From Bacteriovorax sp. MedPE-SWde (GTDB taxonomy: Bacteria > Bdellovibrionota > Bacteriovoracia > Bacteriovoracales > Bacteriovoracaceae): a stretch of DNA of 64,000 nucleotides. A program made the position numbers and the translations under genes. Below are positions 4,225 to 32,176 of this stretch, one piece after another (the first letter of the stretch is position 1; every line of letters starts with the position of its first letter). Under the pieces are notes generated by a model. The model was given only the letters and a program-made list of their open reading frames with translations. It made no database searches and was not told the DNA's origin. Location of the stretch: NCBI GenBank assembly GCA_001874305.1, contig MPCU01000002.1:248001-312000 (forward strand), in the 5' to 3' direction.

Positions 4225-5154
4225 TTATTCAATAATTTTTAAAATATTAATACCTTTGACAGTCTTGTGACCAATATATTTTCTCAAGTAATCTTCTAGT
4301 AGGTCTTGTTTTACAACGCCTTTCCCACTTGGGCTAGCATGTCTAAAATAGAGACTTCCATTATCCCTAATGGCCAGACCTTGATGAGAAACATTTATAT
4401 TTGTTCCAATATACTTTTCTAAGTTCCAATTGGGTCTTACAATATTGATGATATCTCCACTATTAATAGAGTTAAAGACTCTTCTTCTTAATTTCTTATT
4501 CTTTTTAAAGATATGTTTAATTGGCATAAATGGAATACTTGCCATCACTGGGTCATATTGATTACCTTCTTCTTGAAGTTCATTTAGTAAGTCTTCTCGA
4601 TCCTCAAGAGTGCTCTTCTCAAGTATAGAAATCCTATCCATATTCATTTTCTTATACCACTCTTTCTTATTAATCTTTGAACTGGCCATTTCGATATACT
4701 TTTCATTAAACACTTCAGTAGTAATATCCTCTATTACACCTAATTCGATATTTTGTGGAATCCAATCGGCACTAGTAAAATGGTTTCTAGTAATAAAAGA
4801 GATCTTTCCATTCTGATAGCGAATCTCAGTTATACGTCTCTTAAAGTCCTCTATATCATCAGCAAGAAGAAGCGCCATAACTGTTTCAACATATGTTGTG
4901 CAATCAAACTCGTCAGTTCTCCACAGAGGGTCCTGATCATATATGGCATCTACTCCCTCACCAAGTGGCCCAAGAGTGTTATAGCTTCGTCCTAGGAATA
5001 CAGCAGATAACTTATTTACCGATTCTGAGATATCCCCATTTCTAGCTTCTAAGAGAGAGTTTATTTCATCTTCATCAAAAACAGAGAATACTTGTAAGGA
5101 AAGTAAAGACATTAAAACAATTGCCAAGTGTCTAAAGTTTGTACACTTCTTCAT
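4225..5154 (-). CDS. DUF1460 family exported hydrolase (NlpC/P60-like fold)
   Basis: Exported protein with a signal peptide to about residue 25. The segment FDCTTYVETVMALL contains the nucleophilic Cys context of DUF1460 proteins, some of which act as cell-wall amidases or endopeptidases. A later His (SHQGLAIRDNG) and the closing region fit the Cys-His arrangement of that family. AGGAG stands 7 bases before ATG 5154. It is divergent from the phosphodiesterase lipoprotein at 5271. A role in trimming prey or self peptidoglycan is plausible but inferred. Confidence 0.82.
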   Translation of the reverse strand: MKKCTNFRHLAIVLMSLLSLQVFSVFDEDEINSLLEARNGDISESVNKLSAVFLGRSYNTLGPLGEGVDAIYDQDPLWRTDEFDCTTYVETVMALLLADDIEDFKRRITEIRYQNGKISFITRNHFTSADWIPQNIELGVIEDITTEVFNEKYIEMASSKINKKEWYKKMNMDRISILEKSTLEDREDLLNELQEEGNQYDPVMASIPFMPIKHIFKKNKKLRRRVFNSINSGDIINIVRPNWNLEKYIGTNINVSHQGLAIRDNGSLYFRHASPSGKGVVKQDLLEDYLRKYIGHKTVKGINILKIIE

Positions 5155-5270
5155 ACATATTCTCCTGTAAAATTCTAGTTATAATATATAGGAGCAAAAT
5201 CCATACCACTTTTAATTCAAGGCGAGATCTATTAATATTTAGAAAATATAAATTTTATAAAGGAATTCTG

Positions 5271-6527
5271 ATGAAAGTGATTTCACTAGCACTACTAGGT
5301 GCTCTTGTAAGTTGTGCTCAAGCACCAAAGTATTTTGTAAAAAAAGACATGCCTGCAAATAGCATCAAGGCACAGAATTCACCTCATATCTTACTTATTT
5401 CAATTGATGGTTATAGATGGGACTATACCAAAAAGTATGCCCCAAAGTTTCTTTCAAAATTTATGAAAGAGGGAGCATCTTTAAAAAGTTTAAGACCTTC
5501 ATACCCTACAAAAACCTTCCCTAATCATCTTTCAATAGTTACAGGTCGCTATCCCATGAATCATGGAATAGTTGCAAATAGATTCTACGCACCGGACTTA
5601 AAAAAATCATATTCTCTCAGAGATAGTAGCGCTGTAACAAATGGTGACTTCTATCAGTCTCTACCTATTTGGGGACTTGCTGAAAGACAACAAATGAGAA
5701 CTGCAACTTACTTTTGGCCTGGATCAGAGGCTGAAGTACAAGGCGAGAGACCTTCATATTATTTAAAGTACAATCATGGTGCTCCTCACTCCGAAAGAAT
5801 AAATACTGTAGAAAAATGGTTTCATCTTAGCAAAGATAAAAGGCCACACTTAGTTACACTATACTTTCATGATGTAGATAGTGCTGGTCATAAGTTTGGT
5901 CCAGATTCACTTCAAACAAAAGAAGCTATAGATAAAGTAGATAAGAGTATCGAAGATATTGTAACGAGAGTAAGAAAGTTAAAGTACCCAGTAAATATAA
6001 TAATTGTTTCCGATCATGGAATGGCCGAACTTAAAAAAGAAAACTTTGAATCAATTATAAAATCAGATGCCACAAAGAATATAATCTCTAGCTTCACAGT
6101 AAAAGGAAAAGGACCAATCATCCAACTTTACAGTAAAGATGAAAGTGAAGCTAACCCAAAGAGTTTTACTCACCTACTTAACAAGAATGCAAAGAACTAC
6201 AAATGTCATCAGGGCCATAAAATTCCGAAGAAGCTTAACTTTAGAAATAAGCCTCGAGTAGGAGATATTGTTTGTATTGCAAATAAGGGCTGGTCCATTG
6301 GAACAAAGAATACTTCTATCCCTAAAGGGAATCATGGTTGGTCTCAATATGATGGTATGGACATGCATGCAATCTTCTATGCACAAGGTCCACAGTTTAA
6401 GAAAAATAAAGTTATTGGAACTCAAGATAATATAAATATATTCCCACTTATGGCAAAAATTCTAAATCTTAAAATTGATACCAAAATCGATGGAAAGCTA
6501 AAGAAAATGAAGTCCCTACTAAAGTAG
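5271..6527 (+). CDS. Type I phosphodiesterase/nucleotide pyrophosphatase lipoprotein (NPP family)
   Basis: Lipoprotein: a short signal ends in LVSC with lipidated Cys15. The alkaline-phosphatase-fold domain shows the NPP signature SIDGYRWD (metal ligand Asp46) and PTKTFPNH with nucleophile Thr82. Further metal ligands appear in HDVDSAGH, SDHGM and KGNHGW. Start ATG 5271 is chosen because AAGGA precedes it and the lipobox follows; an upstream ATG at 5139 would add an unlikely 44 residues. Probable function is hydrolysis of nucleotide or phosphodiester bonds at the cell surface. Same strand as the TonB receptor 83 bases downstream. Confidence 0.9.
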   Translation: MKVISLALLGALVSCAQAPKYFVKKDMPANSIKAQNSPHILLISIDGYRWDYTKKYAPKFLSKFMKEGASLKSLRPSYPTKTFPNHLSIVTGRYPMNHGIVANRFYAPDLKKSYSLRDSSAVTNGDFYQSLPIWGLAERQQMRTATYFWPGSEAEVQGERPSYYLKYNHGAPHSERINTVEKWFHLSKDKRPHLVTLYFHDVDSAGHKFGPDSLQTKEAIDKVDKSIEDIVTRVRKLKYPVNIIIVSDHGMAELKKENFESIIKSDATKNIISSFTVKGKGPIIQLYSKDESEANPKSFTHLLNKNAKNYKCHQGHKIPKKLNFRNKPRVGDIVCIANKGWSIGTKNTSIPKGNHGWSQYDGMDMHAIFYAQGPQFKKNKVIGTQDNINIFPLMAKILNLKIDTKIDGKLKKMKSLLK

Positions 6528-10005: not shown

Positions 10006-10377
10006 CTAAGCAACGTCTTTTAAGCTATTTACGATCTCAACTATTTCACCAGTATTAAAGGGCTTCTCTAAGATCTTATAAACCTTATCAACATTTCGAT
10101 CGATGAACTCTTGATTAATAAAGCCACTCATTATGACCACAGGAATATCTCTATTTAAATTATTTTCTTCACTCTTTAAAAACTTAAGTACTTCTTCTGA
10201 AGAAGTATCATCCAATAAAATATCCAGAAAAATACATGAGAGCTGCTTCTCTTTTAAGAGCTCTATTGCTTTGTTGGTATTATCCGCTTGCGAACATTCT
10301 ATTCCAGTTGGCTTAAGTTCCCACTCAATAAAGCTTAAAATATCGTGCTGATCATCTACCACTAGTACTGGGTTCAT
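10006..10377 (-). CDS. Single-domain response regulator
   Basis: CheY-like receiver with no output domain: VVDDQHD acidic pair near the N-terminus, phospho-acceptor Asp in IFLDILLDD, Ser in VIMSGF and Lys in LEKPF. ATG 10377 is selected because GGAGGA lies 3 bases upstream; a longer form from 10404 would have no good ribosome binding site. It may be the target of one of the orphan kinases in the region, but no pairing can be read from sequence. Confidence 0.88.
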   Translation of the reverse strand: MNPVLVVDDQHDILSFIEWELKPTGIECSQADNTNKAIELLKEKQLSCIFLDILLDDTSSEEVLKFLKSEENNLNRDIPVVIMSGFINQEFIDRNVDKVYKILEKPFNTGEIVEIVNSLKDVA

Positions 10378-17425: not shown

Positions 17426-17561
17426 ACAAAAACACTCAAGAAGCAGCTTCCAATAGCCGATAATTAACTACAAAATATCTATAAAAAAGTGTGAAAATGT
17501 CATAAACAAATCAAGTTTTATGGTAAAATTGTTTAATCAACTTCTTATCAAAGGTCAAAAA

Positions 17562-18659
17562 ATGAAACGATTAGTTTTATCTACATTTTGCTGTTTTCTA
17601 CTTTCACTCTCATCATACTCCCAGACAAATGATTTCTATACCATTGACGAGTTTTTAAAAGTAAATCCAGAACAAGACCAAAAAATGAAAGTCTTTTCTG
17701 AGATGATTCGATCTAAACCAAATAAAGCTAAAACAACTAAGAAAATTAAAATTGCTGTAATTTATCCAGGTATTCAATTATCTGATTATTGGGTAAGAAG
17801 TCTCAAATCATTTAAGCTTAGACTCGATGAGCTTGGAATTAATTATGAGCTAAAAGAGTACTTTACTCAGGTCGGACAACATAGAAAACAAACAGCAGAT
17901 ATAAAGAATGCATTAAAAGAGAAACCTGATTATATGATTTTTACACTTGCCGTAAGAAAGCATCAAAAACTGATTGGTCGTATTCTATCAGAAAATAAAA
18001 CCAAACTTATACTACAAAATATAACCACTCCCCTAAAGCAGTGGAGCAAGAGTCAGCCTCTACTCTATGTAGGCTTTGACCATATAGAAGGAAGTAAGTT
18101 ACTTGCTAACTACTATAAGAAAAAGCTTAACAATAAAGGGACATATTCAATGTTCTACTATCAAGAGGGCTATATTGCAGATATGAGAGGTACTCAGTTT
18201 ATAAAATACTTTGATAAAATCTCTGATATTAAATTAACAAGTACCTACTATACAGAAGGTAAGTTTGATAAATCCAAAAGTGCCGCCAAATCATTATTAA
18301 AGAAAAAGACGAGACCAAGTTTTATATATGCTTCATCTACGGATATTGCGCTAGGAGCTATACAGGCGATAAAGGCCAAGAAATTAAAGAACCCTCCAAT
18401 CGTTAACGGTTGGGGTGGAGGCTCTAGCGAACTGAAATCTATTATGGCCGGAGACATGACTGTAACGGTAATGAGAATGAATGATGATAATGGTGTCGCC
18501 ATGGCCGAAGCTATAAAGTTAGTTGAACAAGGAAACGAGAGTAAAGTCCCAACTATATATTCAGGAGACTTTGTTCTTGTAGAAAAAGGTATTTCTAAAG
18601 AAGAGATTACTAAATTAAAAGAAAGAGCATTTAGATATTCAGGGTTTTCAAAAAAATGA
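17562..18659 (+). CDS. luxP: LuxP-type autoinducer-2 binding periplasmic protein
   Basis: Signal peptide to about residue 21, then a type I periplasmic-binding fold very like Vibrio LuxP: YPGIQLSDYWVRS, LILQNITTP, LYVGFDHIEGS, GYIADMRG, ASSTDIALGA, NGWGGGSSEL, TVMRMNDD, TVYSGDF-like TIYSGDF, ERAFRYS. The autoinducer-2 contacts I recall for LuxP (Gln77, Ser79, Trp82, Asn159, Arg215, Ser265, Thr266, Trp289, Arg310) all have counterparts at a near-constant offset: Gln72, Ser74, Trp77, Asn153, Arg209, Ser259, Thr260, Trp284, Arg305. ATG 17562 follows AAAGG. The stop overlaps the sensor kinase start by 4 bases (ATGA). Confidence 0.9.
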   Translation: MKRLVLSTFCCFLLSLSSYSQTNDFYTIDEFLKVNPEQDQKMKVFSEMIRSKPNKAKTTKKIKIAVIYPGIQLSDYWVRSLKSFKLRLDELGINYELKEYFTQVGQHRKQTADIKNALKEKPDYMIFTLAVRKHQKLIGRILSENKTKLILQNITTPLKQWSKSQPLLYVGFDHIEGSKLLANYYKKKLNNKGTYSMFYYQEGYIADMRGTQFIKYFDKISDIKLTSTYYTEGKFDKSKSAAKSLLKKKTRPSFIYASSTDIALGAIQAIKAKKLKNPPIVNGWGGGSSELKSIMAGDMTVTVMRMNDDNGVAMAEAIKLVEQGNESKVPTIYSGDFVLVEKGISKEEITKLKERAFRYSGFSKK

Positions 18660-20578
18660 TGAAGCAGCAAAGCAGTCGTAAAAAATTTAATTTTTCCATA
18701 TTAGTAAGTTTAATATTTGTATTACTCTTAGGAATACCTATCTACGGTGTTCTATATACATCGGCTTCACACTCCAAAATTGAAATAGAGAGAGAGCTTA
18801 AAAATGGTCAGGCATACGCATCAAAGTACAACCAAATGCAGGTCGAATTATTCATAAGTCGAATATCGGTTTTTCTACGTTCTACATCTCAAAATATAGC
18901 AGTGATAAATGCATTTACAAATGGAAAGAATATAAATAGAGAGCTAGAAAAAATATATGACTCCGAAAGTGGACAGGATATTGACTTTCTATTTGTACAC
19001 TCTGAAATAAATAATCACCATGGAAATATTTCTTCAAGTCTATATAACACTGATAAGATTTCTAACTTCTTAAACAAGCCAATTTTAAAATTAAATAAAG
19101 ATATTAGAATCGCAATGACTAGAGATGAAGACAATAAACCTCTCGTCTTTGCCTATTCGACACGGCCTATAGTATCTCCAGAATCAGGGGAAGCAATTGG
19201 TGATATAACAGCGGGGATTATTCTAAACAACAATTTGAATATGCTTGAAAGGCTAAAAGAGACGGACAATCTCTTAGATATCGATGCATTCTTTGGAGAA
19301 ACTAAGATACTAGACCTTGCTCACCATAAAGGAACTCACCTATTTACAGATGTCTCTAATAACGAAGTGCTTGTAAAAGGTGATCAAATCATTTCTCCAT
19401 TTAAATTAAACTACATTGGTGCAGAAAATATAAAGTTCTTCTCTACTTATAAGTCCAATGCATTTCAACACTTAAATGAAAAATTTGATAATGAAAAAAT
19501 AATTCTCTTATTTGTAATTATAGGTCTGACCCTGTTATTTTTTCTTATATTTAATATTCTTGTAACAAGGCCACTTACTCGATTAGTTGAATATACTAAG
19601 AGAACTGCCGATTTTTTTAAGGATACAAAGCCAAGCTTTGGTATTATTAATGAGTTTGAGAATCTTGGAGAAGAGTTTTATAAGGCCTTTTCTAAATTAG
19701 CACATTTGAATCAGGGGCTAGAACAGGAAGTTAAAGAAAGAACACTAGAAATAGAAGAAAAGAGAGATCTATTGCAGCAACAGCTTATAGAAGTAAAATC
19801 ACTCCAAGAAAGAATGATTGCACAAGAAAAGCTAACTTCAATGGGTCTACTTCTAGCGGGTGTCTCTCATGAAATTAGAAACCCTCTTAATCTTATTCAA
19901 AACTCTGCACTAATATTAAAAGACATTGTAGAAGAAATAGATGAAGAAAAAGATACTGAAAAGCGATTAGAACTATTCGAAGAACATAAGAATGTTTTTA
20001 ACGAAGTTTCAAATATTGTTATTCAGCACTCTCAAAGATCCACGCGAATTATTAAGTCTATGTTAGATCAGTCTAGAGGAAGTTCTCCAGATAAGACCCT
20101 CGTTGATATAAAAGAAGTTATTTTAACTAACTTAAACTATATAAACAAAGCAACAAATACCGCATTCTATCTAAGGACAGAAATAACAAAAGACTTTGCA
20201 GAAATTGATAAAATTCTTGTATACGAAAGAGAACTTGGCCAAGTTCTAATTAACATACTTGAAAACTCATTCTATGCACTAATCAAAAAGCATGACAAGA
20301 TTGGAGATTCATTTACACCTAAGCTTGAACTCTCTACTGAAGTTATCGACAATAAGATTGTCATAAAGATTAAAGACAATGGAATAGGAATCCCTGCACA
20401 TATTGTAGCGGACATATTCTCTGCATTTAAAACAACAAAGCCTGCTGGAGAAGGAACAGGTTTAGGTTTATCTGTCTCTAAAGATATCATAAAAAAACAT
20501 GATGGAACTATTTCAGTAAACTCTCAAGAAGGAGAATTTACTGAGTTCACGATAAGACTACCAATGATAAAAAAATAA
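18656..20578 (+). CDS. LuxQ-like sensor histidine kinase, non-hybrid
   Basis: Two membrane segments (about 13-35 and 282-304) bracket a ~240-residue periplasmic domain, the size of the tandem-PAS domain of LuxQ. Then come a HAMP-like region, a coiled coil (~350-390), HisKA with His405 in SHEIRNP and a HATPase domain with DNGIGIP and GEGTGLGLS motifs. Vibrio LuxQ also carries a receiver; this protein stops after the ATPase, so it must signal to a separate regulator not found here. The ATGA overlap with luxP implies coupled translation and a LuxP-LuxQ-type complex in the inner membrane. An ATG at 18659 is equally possible. Confidence 0.88.
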   Translation: MMKQQSSRKKFNFSILVSLIFVLLLGIPIYGVLYTSASHSKIEIERELKNGQAYASKYNQMQVELFISRISVFLRSTSQNIAVINAFTNGKNINRELEKIYDSESGQDIDFLFVHSEINNHHGNISSSLYNTDKISNFLNKPILKLNKDIRIAMTRDEDNKPLVFAYSTRPIVSPESGEAIGDITAGIILNNNLNMLERLKETDNLLDIDAFFGETKILDLAHHKGTHLFTDVSNNEVLVKGDQIISPFKLNYIGAENIKFFSTYKSNAFQHLNEKFDNEKIILLFVIIGLTLLFFLIFNILVTRPLTRLVEYTKRTADFFKDTKPSFGIINEFENLGEEFYKAFSKLAHLNQGLEQEVKERTLEIEEKRDLLQQQLIEVKSLQERMIAQEKLTSMGLLLAGVSHEIRNPLNLIQNSALILKDIVEEIDEEKDTEKRLELFEEHKNVFNEVSNIVIQHSQRSTRIIKSMLDQSRGSSPDKTLVDIKEVILTNLNYINKATNTAFYLRTEITKDFAEIDKILVYERELGQVLINILENSFYALIKKHDKIGDSFTPKLELSTEVIDNKIVIKIKDNGIGIPAHIVADIFSAFKTTKPAGEGTGLGLSVSKDIIKKHDGTISVNSQEGEFTEFTIRLPMIKK

Positions 20579-20606
20579 ATATTAAAAACTCAAGGAGGAG
20601 TAAGTT

Positions 20607-21725
20607 ATGTTAAAGAAGACAACAATTGCTTTACTAGTACTAACTGGTTTAAATGTTAGCGCCGCTAAAGGTGGAATAATCATGGCCAAGGATCATATTA
20701 ATTATAAGTTCGGTGGACGACTTATGTTTGATGGTGCCTACTATGATGACGACAAAGTCGACATGCAAAGCGGGACAGAAGTTAGAAGAGCAAGAATGTA
20801 CTTTGCTGGAAAACTAAAAGAAAACTGGGACTTCATTCTTCAAGTTGATTATGCAGGAAACAAATCTACTATTAAGGCCGCTCATATTGGCTACTCTTGG
20901 AATAACTCTAAATTGACTCTTGGAAATCAATTACCTCCATTCTCTTTACAGCTACAAACAAGCTCTAAGTGGCAAACATTTACGACAAGAGCAACTCCAG
21001 TACTAACGCTAAATCCAGATAACTCTTTTGGTCTCTCTTATAAGACCCACAGTGATAAGTTCTTTTTTAAGACCGGTGTATATGGTGGGACAGCATCTAA
21101 CTCAGATAGTAGAGAAAGATTTATACTTGGAGCTAGACTAACAACAGCAAGAAACCTAGGGAAGTCACTTAATCACTTAGGACTCTCTTACCTACACACA
21201 GAAAGGGAAGAGTCAGCATTTAAGTCTAGTAGCGAGACTCATGTAAGTGGATACTCATTTATTGATACAGATACTATATCGAATAGATCATCTGACAGAA
21301 TTGCTGCTGAATATGCATATGTTAACGGTTCCCTATCTGCACAAGCGGAATACTTTCTTACAGATGTAAGAGGAAAAGGACTTAAGAAGACATCATTAGA
21401 TGGATATTATGGTTTTGTAAGTTGGTTCGCTACCGGTGATACAAGAAGGTACTCTAAATCTTCAGGTGCTTTTGGAGAAATCAAGCCTAATAAGGAATTT
21501 GGAAAAGGTGGATCAGGAGCAATTGAAATTGCAGCAAGATATAGCTCACTTGATATGACAGGTAAACTAAATGGCGGAAAACAAGATAATATTGCAGCTG
21601 AATTAAACTGGTACCCAGGTGGTGGTCTAAAATTTATGCTAAACCATACAATGGTTAGTGCAGAAAAAGACAATGATAAAGACAAGCCATCTATCACACA
21701 ATTTAGAGCACAAGTAACATTTTAA
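20607..21725 (+). CDS. Porin, phosphate-selective OprO/OprP type
   Basis: Signal peptide to about residue 20, then an outer-membrane barrel. The N-terminal motif is INYKFGGRLMFDGAYYDDD, followed by EVRRARMYFAGKLKENWDFILQVDY, as in the phosphate-selective porin O/P family. The C-terminus ends in Phe (QFRAQVTF). AGGAGGAG is optimally spaced before ATG 20607, suggesting high expression. It lies 28 bases after the LuxQ-like kinase, so it is probably in the same operon and may admit the ligand. A phosphate preference is not provable from sequence. Confidence 0.85.
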   Translation: MLKKTTIALLVLTGLNVSAAKGGIIMAKDHINYKFGGRLMFDGAYYDDDKVDMQSGTEVRRARMYFAGKLKENWDFILQVDYAGNKSTIKAAHIGYSWNNSKLTLGNQLPPFSLQLQTSSKWQTFTTRATPVLTLNPDNSFGLSYKTHSDKFFFKTGVYGGTASNSDSRERFILGARLTTARNLGKSLNHLGLSYLHTEREESAFKSSSETHVSGYSFIDTDTISNRSSDRIAAEYAYVNGSLSAQAEYFLTDVRGKGLKKTSLDGYYGFVSWFATGDTRRYSKSSGAFGEIKPNKEFGKGGSGAIEIAARYSSLDMTGKLNGGKQDNIAAELNWYPGGGLKFMLNHTMVSAEKDNDKDKPSITQFRAQVTF

Positions 21726-21760: not shown

Positions 21761-21892
21761 ACTTAAAAAAGCCAGTTAAGACAAGAGTAGGAAGAAAAAA
21801 TGACTTTTTCAAATATTCTATCCTAAAAAGTATTTATTTAAATCTCTCATAATGGCATAATATCTTATGAAATAGTTTTGAAAAGGTATAAC

Positions 21893-22663
21893 GTGATCAA
21901 CTCAAGTTTAATGAAAATTAAAATTCTCACTCTCCTATCTTATATACTAATAGGAGGTTTACAATATTCAAGTTTTGCCCAATCTCGAATTCTTACTGCT
22001 TCAGTTTTTGATATCGCTCCATGGGGATATAAAGATGATCAAGGTAAAATCACTGGAATTGAGTATGAAATAATTCAGGCAATATCTAAAGAAATTAAAG
22101 AAGAAATCAAAATAAACTTAGTTCCTTATAATAGAATGATATATCAATTAAAAAATGGAAATGCAGATTTTGGAATTTTCTTTAGAAGTAAGAAGAGCGA
22201 AACAAGTGCTGAGCCGCTAATAAAGTGGGGAGAGCTTGATATCATCATTATTTCAAAAAAAGGTACACAGATAAAAGACTATAAAGACATTAAGAAGCTA
22301 AAAATAGCAGTACGACTTGGCGGTCTCTTTGATAAGAAATTTGATAATGATAAGACAATATTCAAAGTTAGCCAACGAGACTATGCGGAATCTATTTCTA
22401 AATTAACTGAAGGAAAAGTTGATGCTGTCATCGGAACTGCAGCAACATTATTCTATGAATTAAAAAAACAAAAGGTCGATATAAACTCACTTTCAACTCC
22501 ATTCTATCTTAGCAAAAAAGAAGACTGGCTTCACTTTTCAAGACTCTCTAAGAATAAGCATAAGAAAGAGAAGCTCAAAAATGCCGTTACAAAGCTTATT
22601 AAAGATGGAACTTTTAACAAAATATTTATGAAGTACCTACCTAAGAAATGGCAGCATCACTAG
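21893..22663 (+). CDS. Periplasmic solute-binding protein, family 3
   Basis: Signal peptide ends near SSFAQS. The rest is a type II periplasmic-binding domain of SBP_bac_3 type: DIAPWGYKDDQGKITGIEYEIIQAI, VPYNRMIYQLKNGNADFGIFF, and C-terminal KLIKDGTFNKIFMKYL. Family members usually bind amino acids for ABC import. No permease or ATPase is nearby, so it may deliver ligand to a distant transporter or sense it. GTG 21893 is preferred because AAAAGG lies 6 bases before it; TTG 21878 and ATG 21911 are alternatives. Confidence 0.85.
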   Translation: MINSSLMKIKILTLLSYILIGGLQYSSFAQSRILTASVFDIAPWGYKDDQGKITGIEYEIIQAISKEIKEEIKINLVPYNRMIYQLKNGNADFGIFFRSKKSETSAEPLIKWGELDIIIISKKGTQIKDYKDIKKLKIAVRLGGLFDKKFDNDKTIFKVSQRDYAESISKLTEGKVDAVIGTAATLFYELKKQKVDINSLSTPFYLSKKEDWLHFSRLSKNKHKKEKLKNAVTKLIKDGTFNKIFMKYLPKKWQHH

Positions 22664-22728
22664 AAAACTTGATCTGAGTCAATGTCTTAAATCCCAAACG
22701 TGATAAATTCTTAATATAGGAGTTTACC

Positions 22729-23166
22729 ATGGGTATATATCAGACACAGGCAATCAATCAGCAAAGTGATAAAGTATTAAAACTATCTGTAAAAGGTCTA
22801 AGTGATATTTCAGTCAGTCCTCCCCCTGAATTTGGTGGACCAGAAGGATACCTAACTCCAGAGGATCTTTTTTCAGCAAGTATTTCAACTTGCTTCATTC
22901 TTACTTTCAAAGCGATTTCAAGGGCAAAGAAACTAGACTGGAAGTCTATTGATGTAAAAGTTGAAGCGAAGTTAGAAAAGTCTCAACAAGGACTGAAGTT
23001 TACAACAGTCGACATATTCCCTGTCTTAACAATTTGCTGTAAAGAGAACGTAGATCCTTATTTGGAGCTGTTAGCAAAGGCCAAAGACTCTTGTCTTGTA
23101 ACGAAATCAATGAATTGTGATTTTAGTGTTCATCCAAAAATTAAATTGGAAATGATTAAGAAGTAG
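22729..23166 (+). CDS. OsmC/Ohr family protein
   Basis: 145 residues of the OsmC fold: PPPEFGGPEGYLTPEDLFSASISTCFILTFKAISR holds the first conserved Cys, and LTICCKENVDPYLELLAKAKDSCLVTKSM the second. Members reduce organic hydroperoxides with two thiols in a cytoplasmic dimer. TAGGAG is 6 bases before ATG 22729. Its 3' end overlaps the convergent regulator by 11 bases; OsmC genes are often near thiol-sensing regulators, but this regulator lacks Cys. Confidence 0.88.
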   Translation: MGIYQTQAINQQSDKVLKLSVKGLSDISVSPPPEFGGPEGYLTPEDLFSASISTCFILTFKAISRAKKLDWKSIDVKVEAKLEKSQQGLKFTTVDIFPVLTICCKENVDPYLELLAKAKDSCLVTKSMNCDFSVHPKIKLEMIKK

Positions 23167-29353: not shown

Positions 29354-32176
29354 CTATGCCTTAGGGAAATACTTATTAAAAATTCTGATTAAATCATCTT
29401 GAGAGACAGGTTTACTTATAGATTCATTCATACCAGATTTTAAATATCTCTCAACTTCATCTTTCATTACTGATGCCGACAAAGACACAATTATCGGCTT
29501 CTTACTAAATTTCTCTCGTATTTTCTTAGTTGCTTCAACACCATCAAGCTTAGGCATATGATAGTCCATAAAAATCAAGTCATAAGAGTTAGCACTATTC
29601 ATCTCTACTGCTTGCTTACCATTTTCTGCTAAATCAGCATCAATCCCAAGGTTTTTAAGAAATTTAAGAATAACAATTTGATTAATTTTATTATCTTCAG
29701 CTACAAGTACTTTACGTTCTTCAATATCAAAACTAGCAACTACATCAGGAGAAAAAGCATCATTCTCTCGTTCACGATTTGATTTTCTAACAACTATTGA
29801 AAAATCAAATACTGACCCTTCTCCTATATCACTAGTAAGACTGACACTACCTTGCATTAACTTTACAAGTTCTTTAATAATAGTAAGACCTAGTCCTGTA
29901 CCACCATATTGCCTAGTCGTTGAAATATCTTCTTGAGTAAATGGCTCAAAGACTTTTTCAAAAGATTCAATAGGCATTCCTATACCTGTATCACTCACAG
30001 TAAAAATGATTCTTATGTACTCTCCGTTTACAGGTGTAACTGTATAAGAAATTGTTATTTTTCCATTCTTAGTAAATTTATTAGCATTACTTAAGAGATT
30101 ATTAAAAATCTGCTTTATTCGGACACTATCTGCAGCAATATATAACTCCTCACTTTTAAGTGAAGTAAATATAATCTCATTATTGCGATTAACGTCATTC
30201 GCCTTTATAAGGTCAATAACATCTTTGATAGCATTATCTAAGCTAAAGGTAACTTCTTCCAAAGTAACCTTACCAGTTTCTAATTTTGTGATATCTAAAA
30301 TATCATTTATTATTAAGAGAAGATCATTTCCTGACTTTCTAATAATATCCACAAGCTTTAAATTTTCTTTGTCTTCAATATGTTGAGATAGAATTTCAGA
30401 CATTCCAAGAATACCATTCATAGGTGTTCTTATTTCATGACTCATATTTGCAAGAAACATAGATTTAGCATTATTAGCACGCACAAGTTCCTCTGTTCGA
30501 CTTGTCACTTTCGACTCAAGCTCTTCATTTGATTCAAATAGAAGGGCCTTAGAGTTTTGTAGTTCTTCAACAAGTTTTTGTATTTTGGATTCTCGACCAG
30601 TAATAAGAAGTAAGAATGAACCGACAACACCACAAACAAAGAGACCACCGACTAGAACAAACCAAGTATACCAAGACTGCTGAGCTTTATAGTAATTTGG
30701 TTCCTGTGAAATAAATATTTCCCACTTTCGATTATTATAATTCATAAGAACCGACTTTGTTAAAAAGCCTGCTGTCTTTGTAACTTTACTGAGTTCTTTA
30801 AATGTCTTGTTCTCTTTATTAGAACTATATAAAACTGTAGATTGGTCTTTGTCAGTCCTGTCGATAATGAAAAACTCTAGTGAGCGTTTATCAATATTTT
30901 TAAAAGTAGCGTTAACAAGGCTATTAATATTAAAGACTCCTACCGTATAGCCAGTTATATTTTTTCTTCTTTCGTAAACAGTATCGATACGTGTTCCATT
31001 TCTATAAATGGGCAAGAATACGAGATGACCAACTTCCTTCTTCTTATCCTGAACAAGATTAATTGAAGCAGTTCCAACGGCATCGTTTATATCACGGGAT
31101 TTTTCCAGGGCCTCTCTTCTTTTGATATTGGATGAAACGTCAAAGCCATGAACTTTCTTATTTCGATTATAAGGCTCTATATAGTCAACGATAACATAAT
31201 GATCACGCTTCTTAGCCTCTATAACTTTACCGAACTTATTTCTTTCTAATACTCTGAAGTTATTAAAACCTGAATTTCTATTCTTTTTTATTAGTTTATT
31301 CTTATCTCTATGCAAGACAATTGGATTCCAAGATAGGGCCAATATTCCTGTATCTCGAGCGAGAATGTCACTTGTAAAATTTGAAAAATCTGCTCTTGTA
31401 ACATGAGTTGAGCCTTTATATAAATTTGTAATTGAGCGAAGAGATTCTATATGTTGTCGAGCATTACTCTTGAACTGATTTTCAATATTCCTAACTCTCG
31501 TTTCAAAATTTTGTATTATTCTTTTTTCATCCCACTTTCTGGCATAGACAAAGAAAATAGTTATTAAACCAAAGAGAATAATGACTGGTAGTGCATAATT
31601 GAGACGACGCAATCTCCATAGTTCAATCTTATTAAAGAAGAATGTGAGAAATAGTGGTGCTGCTACGACTGATCCTATGGAATCACCAACCCACCAAGTG
31701 AATAAAGTGAAAATTGATGCCTGAAGCGGTACTATTCCAGATAATACAAGAGTTAAAACCCCTATGACTGAGCTTGCAATACAAGATATTGGTCCAGCAA
31801 TAACGAAGAACCTGAATATACAGGCGCCATTATCAAGTTCCATCTTACTTTCATCTAGCTTGTTAATTATCCACGCACCAGAGAACGCCTGCAAACTAGC
31901 ACCTGACGCTATCGACATTGCAATTAAAATAGCTCTTATAATTTCATCATTTGTAGAAAGATTTAATAGGTTTGGAATATTAACAAAGAATGAGCCAATT
32001 GCGACTCCAATTACTGCTACAGGACCAAAAACAATCGCCGAAGCAAGAGCAATCCCAGCAGCAGGCCATACGGCACTAGCAAAGCCAGGGGGTATCGCAA
32101 GTAATAACCCCATTCTTCCTGTTACAAAATAGAGTAATGCAATAAATAGAATAATAGCAAATTTGTTATTTTTCAT
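29354..32176 (-). CDS. Hybrid sensor histidine kinase, MASE1-CHASE-HisKA-HATPase-receiver
   Basis: The N-terminal ~190 residues are MASE1: about eight membrane helices with GLLLAIPPGFASAVWPAAGIALASAI. A CHASE ligand-binding domain (~235-430) follows, and another membrane helix (~503-526) leads to HisKA with His580 in SHEIRTP. The ATPase domain has DTGIGMP and GGTGLGLT motifs, and the receiver has Asp871 and Lys in SKPV. CHASE domains bind small extracellular ligands such as cytokinins. No Hpt domain is fused. AGGG precedes ATG 32176. Confidence 0.93.
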   Translation of the reverse strand: MKNNKFAIILFIALLYFVTGRMGLLLAIPPGFASAVWPAAGIALASAIVFGPVAVIGVAIGSFFVNIPNLLNLSTNDEIIRAILIAMSIASGASLQAFSGAWIINKLDESKMELDNGACIFRFFVIAGPISCIASSVIGVLTLVLSGIVPLQASIFTLFTWWVGDSIGSVVAAPLFLTFFFNKIELWRLRRLNYALPVIILFGLITIFFVYARKWDEKRIIQNFETRVRNIENQFKSNARQHIESLRSITNLYKGSTHVTRADFSNFTSDILARDTGILALSWNPIVLHRDKNKLIKKNRNSGFNNFRVLERNKFGKVIEAKKRDHYVIVDYIEPYNRNKKVHGFDVSSNIKRREALEKSRDINDAVGTASINLVQDKKKEVGHLVFLPIYRNGTRIDTVYERRKNITGYTVGVFNINSLVNATFKNIDKRSLEFFIIDRTDKDQSTVLYSSNKENKTFKELSKVTKTAGFLTKSVLMNYNNRKWEIFISQEPNYYKAQQSWYTWFVLVGGLFVCGVVGSFLLLITGRESKIQKLVEELQNSKALLFESNEELESKVTSRTEELVRANNAKSMFLANMSHEIRTPMNGILGMSEILSQHIEDKENLKLVDIIRKSGNDLLLIINDILDITKLETGKVTLEEVTFSLDNAIKDVIDLIKANDVNRNNEIIFTSLKSEELYIAADSVRIKQIFNNLLSNANKFTKNGKITISYTVTPVNGEYIRIIFTVSDTGIGMPIESFEKVFEPFTQEDISTTRQYGGTGLGLTIIKELVKLMQGSVSLTSDIGEGSVFDFSIVVRKSNRERENDAFSPDVVASFDIEERKVLVAEDNKINQIVILKFLKNLGIDADLAENGKQAVEMNSANSYDLIFMDYHMPKLDGVEATKKIREKFSKKPIIVSLSASVMKDEVERYLKSGMNESISKPVSQDDLIRIFNKYFPKA

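What the first reader, a model, noticed from the sequence alone, without database searches (positions are those of the whole stretch)
17562..21725. LuxP-LuxQ-type autoinducer-2 sensing operon with a porin in a probable predator
The binding protein keeps counterparts of the LuxP autoinducer-2 contacts I recall (Gln72, Ser74, Trp77, Asn153, Arg209, Ser259, Thr260, Trp284, Arg305) at a near-constant 5-6 residue offset from Vibrio numbering. It overlaps by ATGA a two-helix kinase with a ~240-residue periplasmic domain, as in LuxQ, but without the LuxQ receiver. A porin follows. LuxPQ is classically a Vibrionales system, so its presence here suggests eavesdropping on bacteria or on prey. No luxS is visible in the window.
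Basis: partly seen in the sequence, partly recalled or inferred. Interest (0 to 1): 0.85.

Follow-up and report, generated by a model that had tools for sequence, protein, structure and literature searches.

The report
Autoinducer-2 receptor in a predator's relative
A bacterium from the family of the marine predator Halobacteriovorax carries a convincing copy of the LuxP-LuxQ receptor that Vibrio uses to sense the signal autoinducer-2, but lacks the usual enzyme that makes that signal, so it probably listens to other bacteria.

Summary
Window 17562-18659 encodes a LuxP orthologue: 45-49% identical to V. harveyi LuxP, with all nine recalled autoinducer-2 (AI-2) contacts kept, including the Arg pair. 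Its model matches LuxP structures at Z 41-44 against 30 for the best sugar receptor. The overlapping kinase carries a LuxQ periplasmic domain (PF09308, E 1e-10; model Z 18-19 to LuxQ, next 13.7) on a HisKA/HATPase core without a receiver. A porin follows 28 bp later; kinase-porin order is kept in a second species of the genus.

No luxS is found in this 99.7%-complete genome or in 129 genomes of its order; SahH is present. A same-family assembly is, by exact chromosome length, Halobacteriovorax marinus SJ, whose LuxPQ sits at another site.

Two corrections. LuxP is not Vibrionales-only: relatives occur in Campylobacterota, Desulfobacterota, Oceanospirillales and Alphaproteobacteria, about half without luxS. 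The window's copy does not group with Vibrio's.

Most likely an AI-2 'listener' two-component receptor. A 2024 survey already named B. marinus SJ an AI-2 listener, and a 2025 study reports AI-2 binding by non-Vibrio LuxP proteins. Ligand, regulator and any link to predation are untested.

The parts
17562..18659 (+). luxP: periplasmic AI-2-binding protein (365 aa, Sec-type signal peptide by eye; an upstream in-frame ATG at 17520 is also possible)
   Evidence: E 4e-97 to V. harveyi LuxP; nine contacts Q72 S74 W77 N153 R209 S259 T260 W284 R305 kept; model pLDDT 93, Z 43-44 to LuxP
18656..20578 (+). luxQ-like sensor histidine kinase (639-640 aa) overlapping luxP by ATGA; no receiver domain
   Evidence: PF09308, HisKA, HATPase_c; NCBIfam LuxQ_Vibrio E 7e-30 over residues 11-352 but far under its cut-off; overlap seen in sequence
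18755..19498 (+). LuxQ-type periplasmic sensor domain (about 245 aa between two transmembrane helices)
   Evidence: PF09308 hit residues 43-205, E 1e-10; model pLDDT 90, Z 18.9 to V. cholerae LuxQ 3c38
19841..20566 (+). kinase core: HisKA with phosphoacceptor H404 in SHEIRNP, N box 532, G boxes 573 and 597
   Evidence: Pfam HisKA 395-475, HATPase_c 523-636; motif positions
20607..21725 (+). porin of the OprO/OprP type (Porin_O_P), likely co-transcribed with luxPQ
   Evidence: PF07396 E 4e-49; 28-bp gap with AAGGAGGAG; 68% identical orthologue directly after the LuxQ orthologue in G049
21878..22663 (+). conserved neighbour: SBP_bac_3 periplasmic binding protein (start codon uncertain)
   Evidence: PF00497; same order in G049, 66% identical
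22729..23166 (+). conserved neighbour, OsmC-like by eye
   Evidence: orthologue at the same place in G049; family call by sequence pattern only

Best explanation
This is a LuxP-LuxQ-type receptor. LuxP catches AI-2, most likely the borate form S-THMF-borate, in the periplasm. LuxP pairs with the dCache-like periplasmic domain of the co-encoded kinase, and ligand binding changes the kinase/phosphatase balance at H404. Because the kinase has no receiver, phosphate would go straight to a separate, unlinked response regulator rather than through a LuxQ receiver-LuxU-LuxO relay. The bacterium has no luxS and recycles S-adenosylhomocysteine with SahH, so the signal would come from other bacteria. 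Shown: protein families, folds, conserved pocket residues, gene order, absence of luxS. Inferred: ligand identity, LuxP-LuxQ contact, direction of the switch, the regulator, the regulated genes and the porin's role.
For: LuxP identity and pocket. LuxP branch clearly apart from E. coli RbsB and LsrB. LuxP model Z 43.8 (1zhh_A) and 43.0 (1jx6, AI-2 complex), next non-LuxP 29.6. LuxQ domain by Pfam and structure. Kinase-porin-SBP-OsmC order kept at 63-68% identity for kinase, porin and SBP in G049, whose contig ends where luxP would lie. No luxS in the genome or in 129 genomes of the order; SahH present. Adjacent LuxP and LuxQ-domain partner recur across several phyla. PMC12268683 reports AI-2 binding by three LuxP proteins from proteobacteria and deferribacterota.
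Against: No binding test exists for this protein. LuxP structures with other borate esters exist (4yr7, 4yp9), so the same pocket can hold more than AI-2. The LuxQ domain is far diverged (about 10-22% identical to relatives outside the genus). No response regulator lies beside the kinase, and the genome has about 105 receiver domains, so the output is unknown.
Confidence: 0.78

Rival explanations
1. Same receptor architecture, but the natural ligand is another borate ester of a sugar-like diol (or a sugar), not AI-2; in lineages without luxS the pocket reports something other than bacterial signalling.
For: LuxP binds 1-deoxy-xylulofuranose-borate and a formose-derived analogue in solved structures. 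About half of the non-Vibrio carriers lack luxS.
Against: All nine AI-2 contacts are identical to V. harveyi here. Non-Vibrio LuxP proteins tested elsewhere bind AI-2 (PMC12268683).
Confidence: 0.15
2. The LuxP is a chemotaxis or transport sugar receptor next to an unrelated kinase.
For: LuxP belongs to the ribose-binding superfamily (Peripla_BP_4).
Against: Tree and structure place it with LuxP by a wide margin. No ABC transporter genes are adjacent. The kinase has the LuxQ-specific sensor domain, and the LuxP/LuxQ-domain pairing recurs across phyla.
Confidence: 0.03
3. The operon was taken recently from Vibrio prey.
For: Halobacteriovorax predators attack vibrios (PMC5760749), and many LuxP sequences known are from Vibrio.
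Against: Vibrionaceae LuxPs form a 100/100 clade that excludes the window. Holding the window with Vibrio is rejected, p-AU 0.014. G+C of luxP and luxQ (0.33, 0.32) is slightly under the window mean of 0.36 and like the flanks. An orthologous cluster with 63-68% identity exists in another species of the genus.
Confidence: 0.04

Closest known systems
Vibrio harveyi / V. cholerae LuxP-LuxQ
   Same: LuxP with all nine AI-2 contacts; LuxQ periplasmic domain; luxP-luxQ adjacent or overlapping gene pair
   Different: Kinase lacks the receiver; different kinase core; no luxS; a porin follows; branch outside the Vibrionaceae clade
Halobacteriovorax LuxPQ (genus code g16; G043 has the length of H. marinus SJ)
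   Same: Same family, luxP-luxQ pair, no receiver, no luxS; a 2024 survey lists B. marinus SJ as an AI-2 listener (PMC11069264)
   Different: Different genomic site (between gpsA-like and kdsC-like genes), different kinase core (PAS found in one), no porin; LuxP 40-47% identical
LuxP with LuxQ-domain GGDEF protein (Sulfurospirillum MAG, L027)
   Same: Nearest LuxP in the tree (96/89)
   Different: Output is a diguanylate cyclase; two contact positions differ (Gln to Glu, Ser to Ala); genome has luxS
TorT-TorS
   Same: Periplasmic binding protein feeding a sensor kinase
   Different: TMAO system; LuxP model matches TorT only at Z 25.5
LsrB, RbsB
   Same: Same superfamily of periplasmic binding proteins
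   Different: Contacts not kept; part of transport operons

Membership tests
LuxP AI-2 receptor | Closest to LuxP rather than to sugar receptors in sequence, tree and fold | tested here: met
   E 4e-97 against 1e-10 for the next protein; tree; Z 43.8 against 29.6
LuxP AI-2 receptor | Nine AI-2 contacts including the Arg pair facing borate | tested here: met
   All nine identical; the contact list itself is from memory of the 1JX6 work
LuxP AI-2 receptor | Binds S-THMF-borate | not testable with these tools
   Needs purified protein; three LuxP proteins from proteobacteria and deferribacterota are reported to bind AI-2 (PMC12268683)
LuxQ | LuxQ periplasmic domain between two transmembrane helices | tested here: met
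   PF09308 41.9 bits, cut-off 25.7; Z 18.9 to LuxQ
LuxQ | Hybrid kinase with C-terminal receiver (Vibrio LuxQ equivalog) | tested here: not met
   No Response_reg; NCBIfam LuxQ_Vibrio 103.6 bits against cut-off 1200. So not a Vibrio-type LuxQ; it shares the input half
LuxPQ quorum-sensing circuit | luxS in the same organism | tested here: not met
   None in genome or order
LuxPQ quorum-sensing circuit | LuxU/LuxO relay | tested here: inconclusive
   Genome has 14 Hpt matches and about 105 receivers; no LuxU or LuxO orthology test was made
LuxPQ receptor | LuxP binds LuxQ periplasmic domain and switches kinase to phosphatase | not testable with these tools
   Only gene overlap and recurrence of the pair across phyla support it

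The most novel reading that the evidence does not exclude
A predatory bacterium that does not make AI-2 uses LuxPQ to sense AI-2 from its prey, or prey density, and through the kinase tunes attack or growth and the adjacent porin.
Probability: 0.3. Interest if true: 0.8.

Novelty: new member of a known kind. Interest (0 to 1): 0.5.

Why it matters
If it binds AI-2, a luxS-lacking relative of marine predators has a dedicated receptor for a signal made by many of its potential prey, which makes 'predator eavesdropping' directly testable with a defined gene pair. More generally, a 2025 paper still states that LuxP is exclusive to Vibrio (PMC12503165), whereas the LuxP plus LuxQ-domain input recurs in several phyla joined to kinases, c-di-GMP enzymes and a phosphatase, often without luxS.

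Tried and rejected
Ribose or other sugar receptor: rejected by tree, contacts and fold margin. Recent transfer from Vibrio: AU test p 0.014. Simple vertical descent with Halobacteriovorax LuxPQ: neither shown nor excluded (p-AU 0.115); site and kinase core differ. Linked response regulator: none adjacent; nearest receivers in the window are about 7 kb upstream (10030-10368, minus strand) and about 9 kb downstream (29381-29710, in a long open frame). Two close paralogous kinases elsewhere have single-domain receivers next door, this one does not. Promoter and terminator scans gave no more hits than shuffled sequence. The LuxQ-domain tree has many long branches and is not used for fine placement.

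Full report
What is there. Window 17562-18659 encodes a 365-aa periplasmic binding protein. It hits V. harveyi LuxP structures at E 4e-97 and the next protein at 1e-10; identity is 47-49% in pairwise and structural alignments and 45% over the full-length family alignment. Over 86 LuxP rows these positions average 97% conservation against 62% for all positions, and none of 100,000 random sets of nine reached that. W82, N159, R215, T266, W289 and R310 are invariant. E. coli RbsB keeps only one Arg of the set, and LsrB none.

The partner kinase starts inside the LuxP stop codon (ATGATGA). It has two transmembrane stretches (by eye) enclosing about 245 residues, a LuxQ periplasmic domain (PF09308, 41.9 bits, cut-off 25.7), HisKA and HATPase_c, and ends three residues after the ATPase domain, so it has no receiver. 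H404 lies in SHEIRNP, and the N and G boxes are present. A Porin_O_P gene follows 28 bp later behind AAGGAGGAG.

Structure. The LuxP model (pLDDT 93) matches LuxP entries at Z 40.9-43.8, including 43.0 for the AI-2 complex 1jx6; the best other protein, a ribose receptor, scores 29.6. The sensor-domain model (pLDDT 90) matches LuxQ entries at Z 17.8-18.9, and the next sensor domain at 13.7. A shared fold shows no function, but here the margin over the wider superfamily is large for both proteins.

Genome and relatives. The genome (3.76 Mb, 99.7% complete) has no luxS, nor has any of 129 genomes of its order; SahH is present. LuxP occurs in all five genomes of genus code g16 in the same family but, in the window's own genus, was found only here. 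A second species of the window's genus, G049 (78% complete), has the kinase at 63% identity at a contig end, followed by orthologues of the porin (68%), the SBP_bac_3 protein (66%) and the OsmC-like protein; its luxP would lie beyond the contig end. In three Halobacteriovorax-type genomes read in full, luxPQ sits elsewhere, between gpsA-like and kdsC-like genes (named by eye), with a different kinase core (a PAS domain was detected in one) and no porin.

Spread of the family. A genome-collection scan found 288 LuxP relatives; of the best 80, 44 are Vibrionaceae and 36 are not (Campylobacterota, Desulfobacterota, Oceanospirillales, Alphaproteobacteria, others). Of 27 non-Vibrio partner genes scanned, 13 are histidine kinases without a receiver, 6 have a receiver (two with Hpt), 5 are GGDEF or GGDEF-EAL proteins, one is a SpoIIE phosphatase and two are undetermined; PF09308 was detected in 25, and the other two, from Halobacteriovorax-type genomes, score weakly in a whole-genome search. 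luxS was found in 17 of 34 non-Vibrio LuxP genomes searched; many are metagenome assemblies, so absence there is uncertain. In the tree the Vibrionaceae form a fully supported clade without the window; the window pairs with a Sulfurospirillum LuxP (96/89). Grouping the window with Vibrio is rejected (p-AU 0.014); grouping it with Halobacteriovorax is not (p-AU 0.115). Both tests were run after a first tree had been seen, and long branches are in play, so the p-values are a guide only.

What was already known. Early surveys found LuxPQ complete only in Vibrionales but noted LuxP homologues in Oceanospirillales and Desulfo- species without luxS (PMC524169, PMC2561040). A 2016 review lists LuxP in Desulfovibrio (PMC5187520). 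A 2024 survey lists Bacteriovorax marinus SJ as an AI-2 listener (PMC11069264). A 2025 survey counts 267 LuxP proteins and reports AI-2 binding by three from proteobacteria and deferribacterota (PMC12268683). Another 2025 paper still states LuxP is exclusive to Vibrio (PMC12503165). I found no paper describing the kinase partner in this lineage or the range of outputs, within a library that lacks most subscription journals.

Mechanism. By analogy to Vibrio, where AI-2 bound to LuxP turns LuxQ from kinase to phosphatase (PMC524169), I infer the same input here, with direct transfer to an unlinked response regulator because the receiver is missing. The source of AI-2 would be other bacteria. The porin may be co-regulated or may admit the ligand; this is speculation, resting only on its conserved place. 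Quinolone signals of Pseudomonas are reported to inhibit Bdellovibrio predation (PMC8461301), which shows that such cross-talk is plausible, not that it happens here.

Limits. There are no binding, interaction or expression data; the regulator is unknown; the organism's own predation is inferred from its family only.

Noticed in passing
L027, L057, L058, L062, L086, L009: LuxQ periplasmic domain next to LuxP but fused to GGDEF, GGDEF-EAL or SpoIIE outputs instead of a kinase: a modular AI-2-type input outside Vibrio.
   Followed up: partly
G000:C12:56815-58125 and G000:C12:227562-229067: Close paralogues of the window kinase core (about 37-40% identical) each have a single-domain receiver gene directly after them; candidates for the type of regulator used.
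   Followed up: no
L041 and L047 (Motilimonas): LuxP genes without a LuxQ-like gene directly downstream.
   Followed up: no
L072:6086-7033: Marinobacterium jannaschii: a 315-aa frame after LuxP with the LuxQ periplasmic domain and no output domain; possibly frameshifted or truncated.
   Followed up: no
L027 LuxP (Sulfurospirillum MAG), 4947-6011: Nearest LuxP to the window carries Glu for the Gln contact and Ala for the Ser265 contact; ligand preference may differ.
   Followed up: no
window 21878-23166: SBP_bac_3 and OsmC-like genes keep their order after the porin in a second species of the genus.
   Followed up: partly
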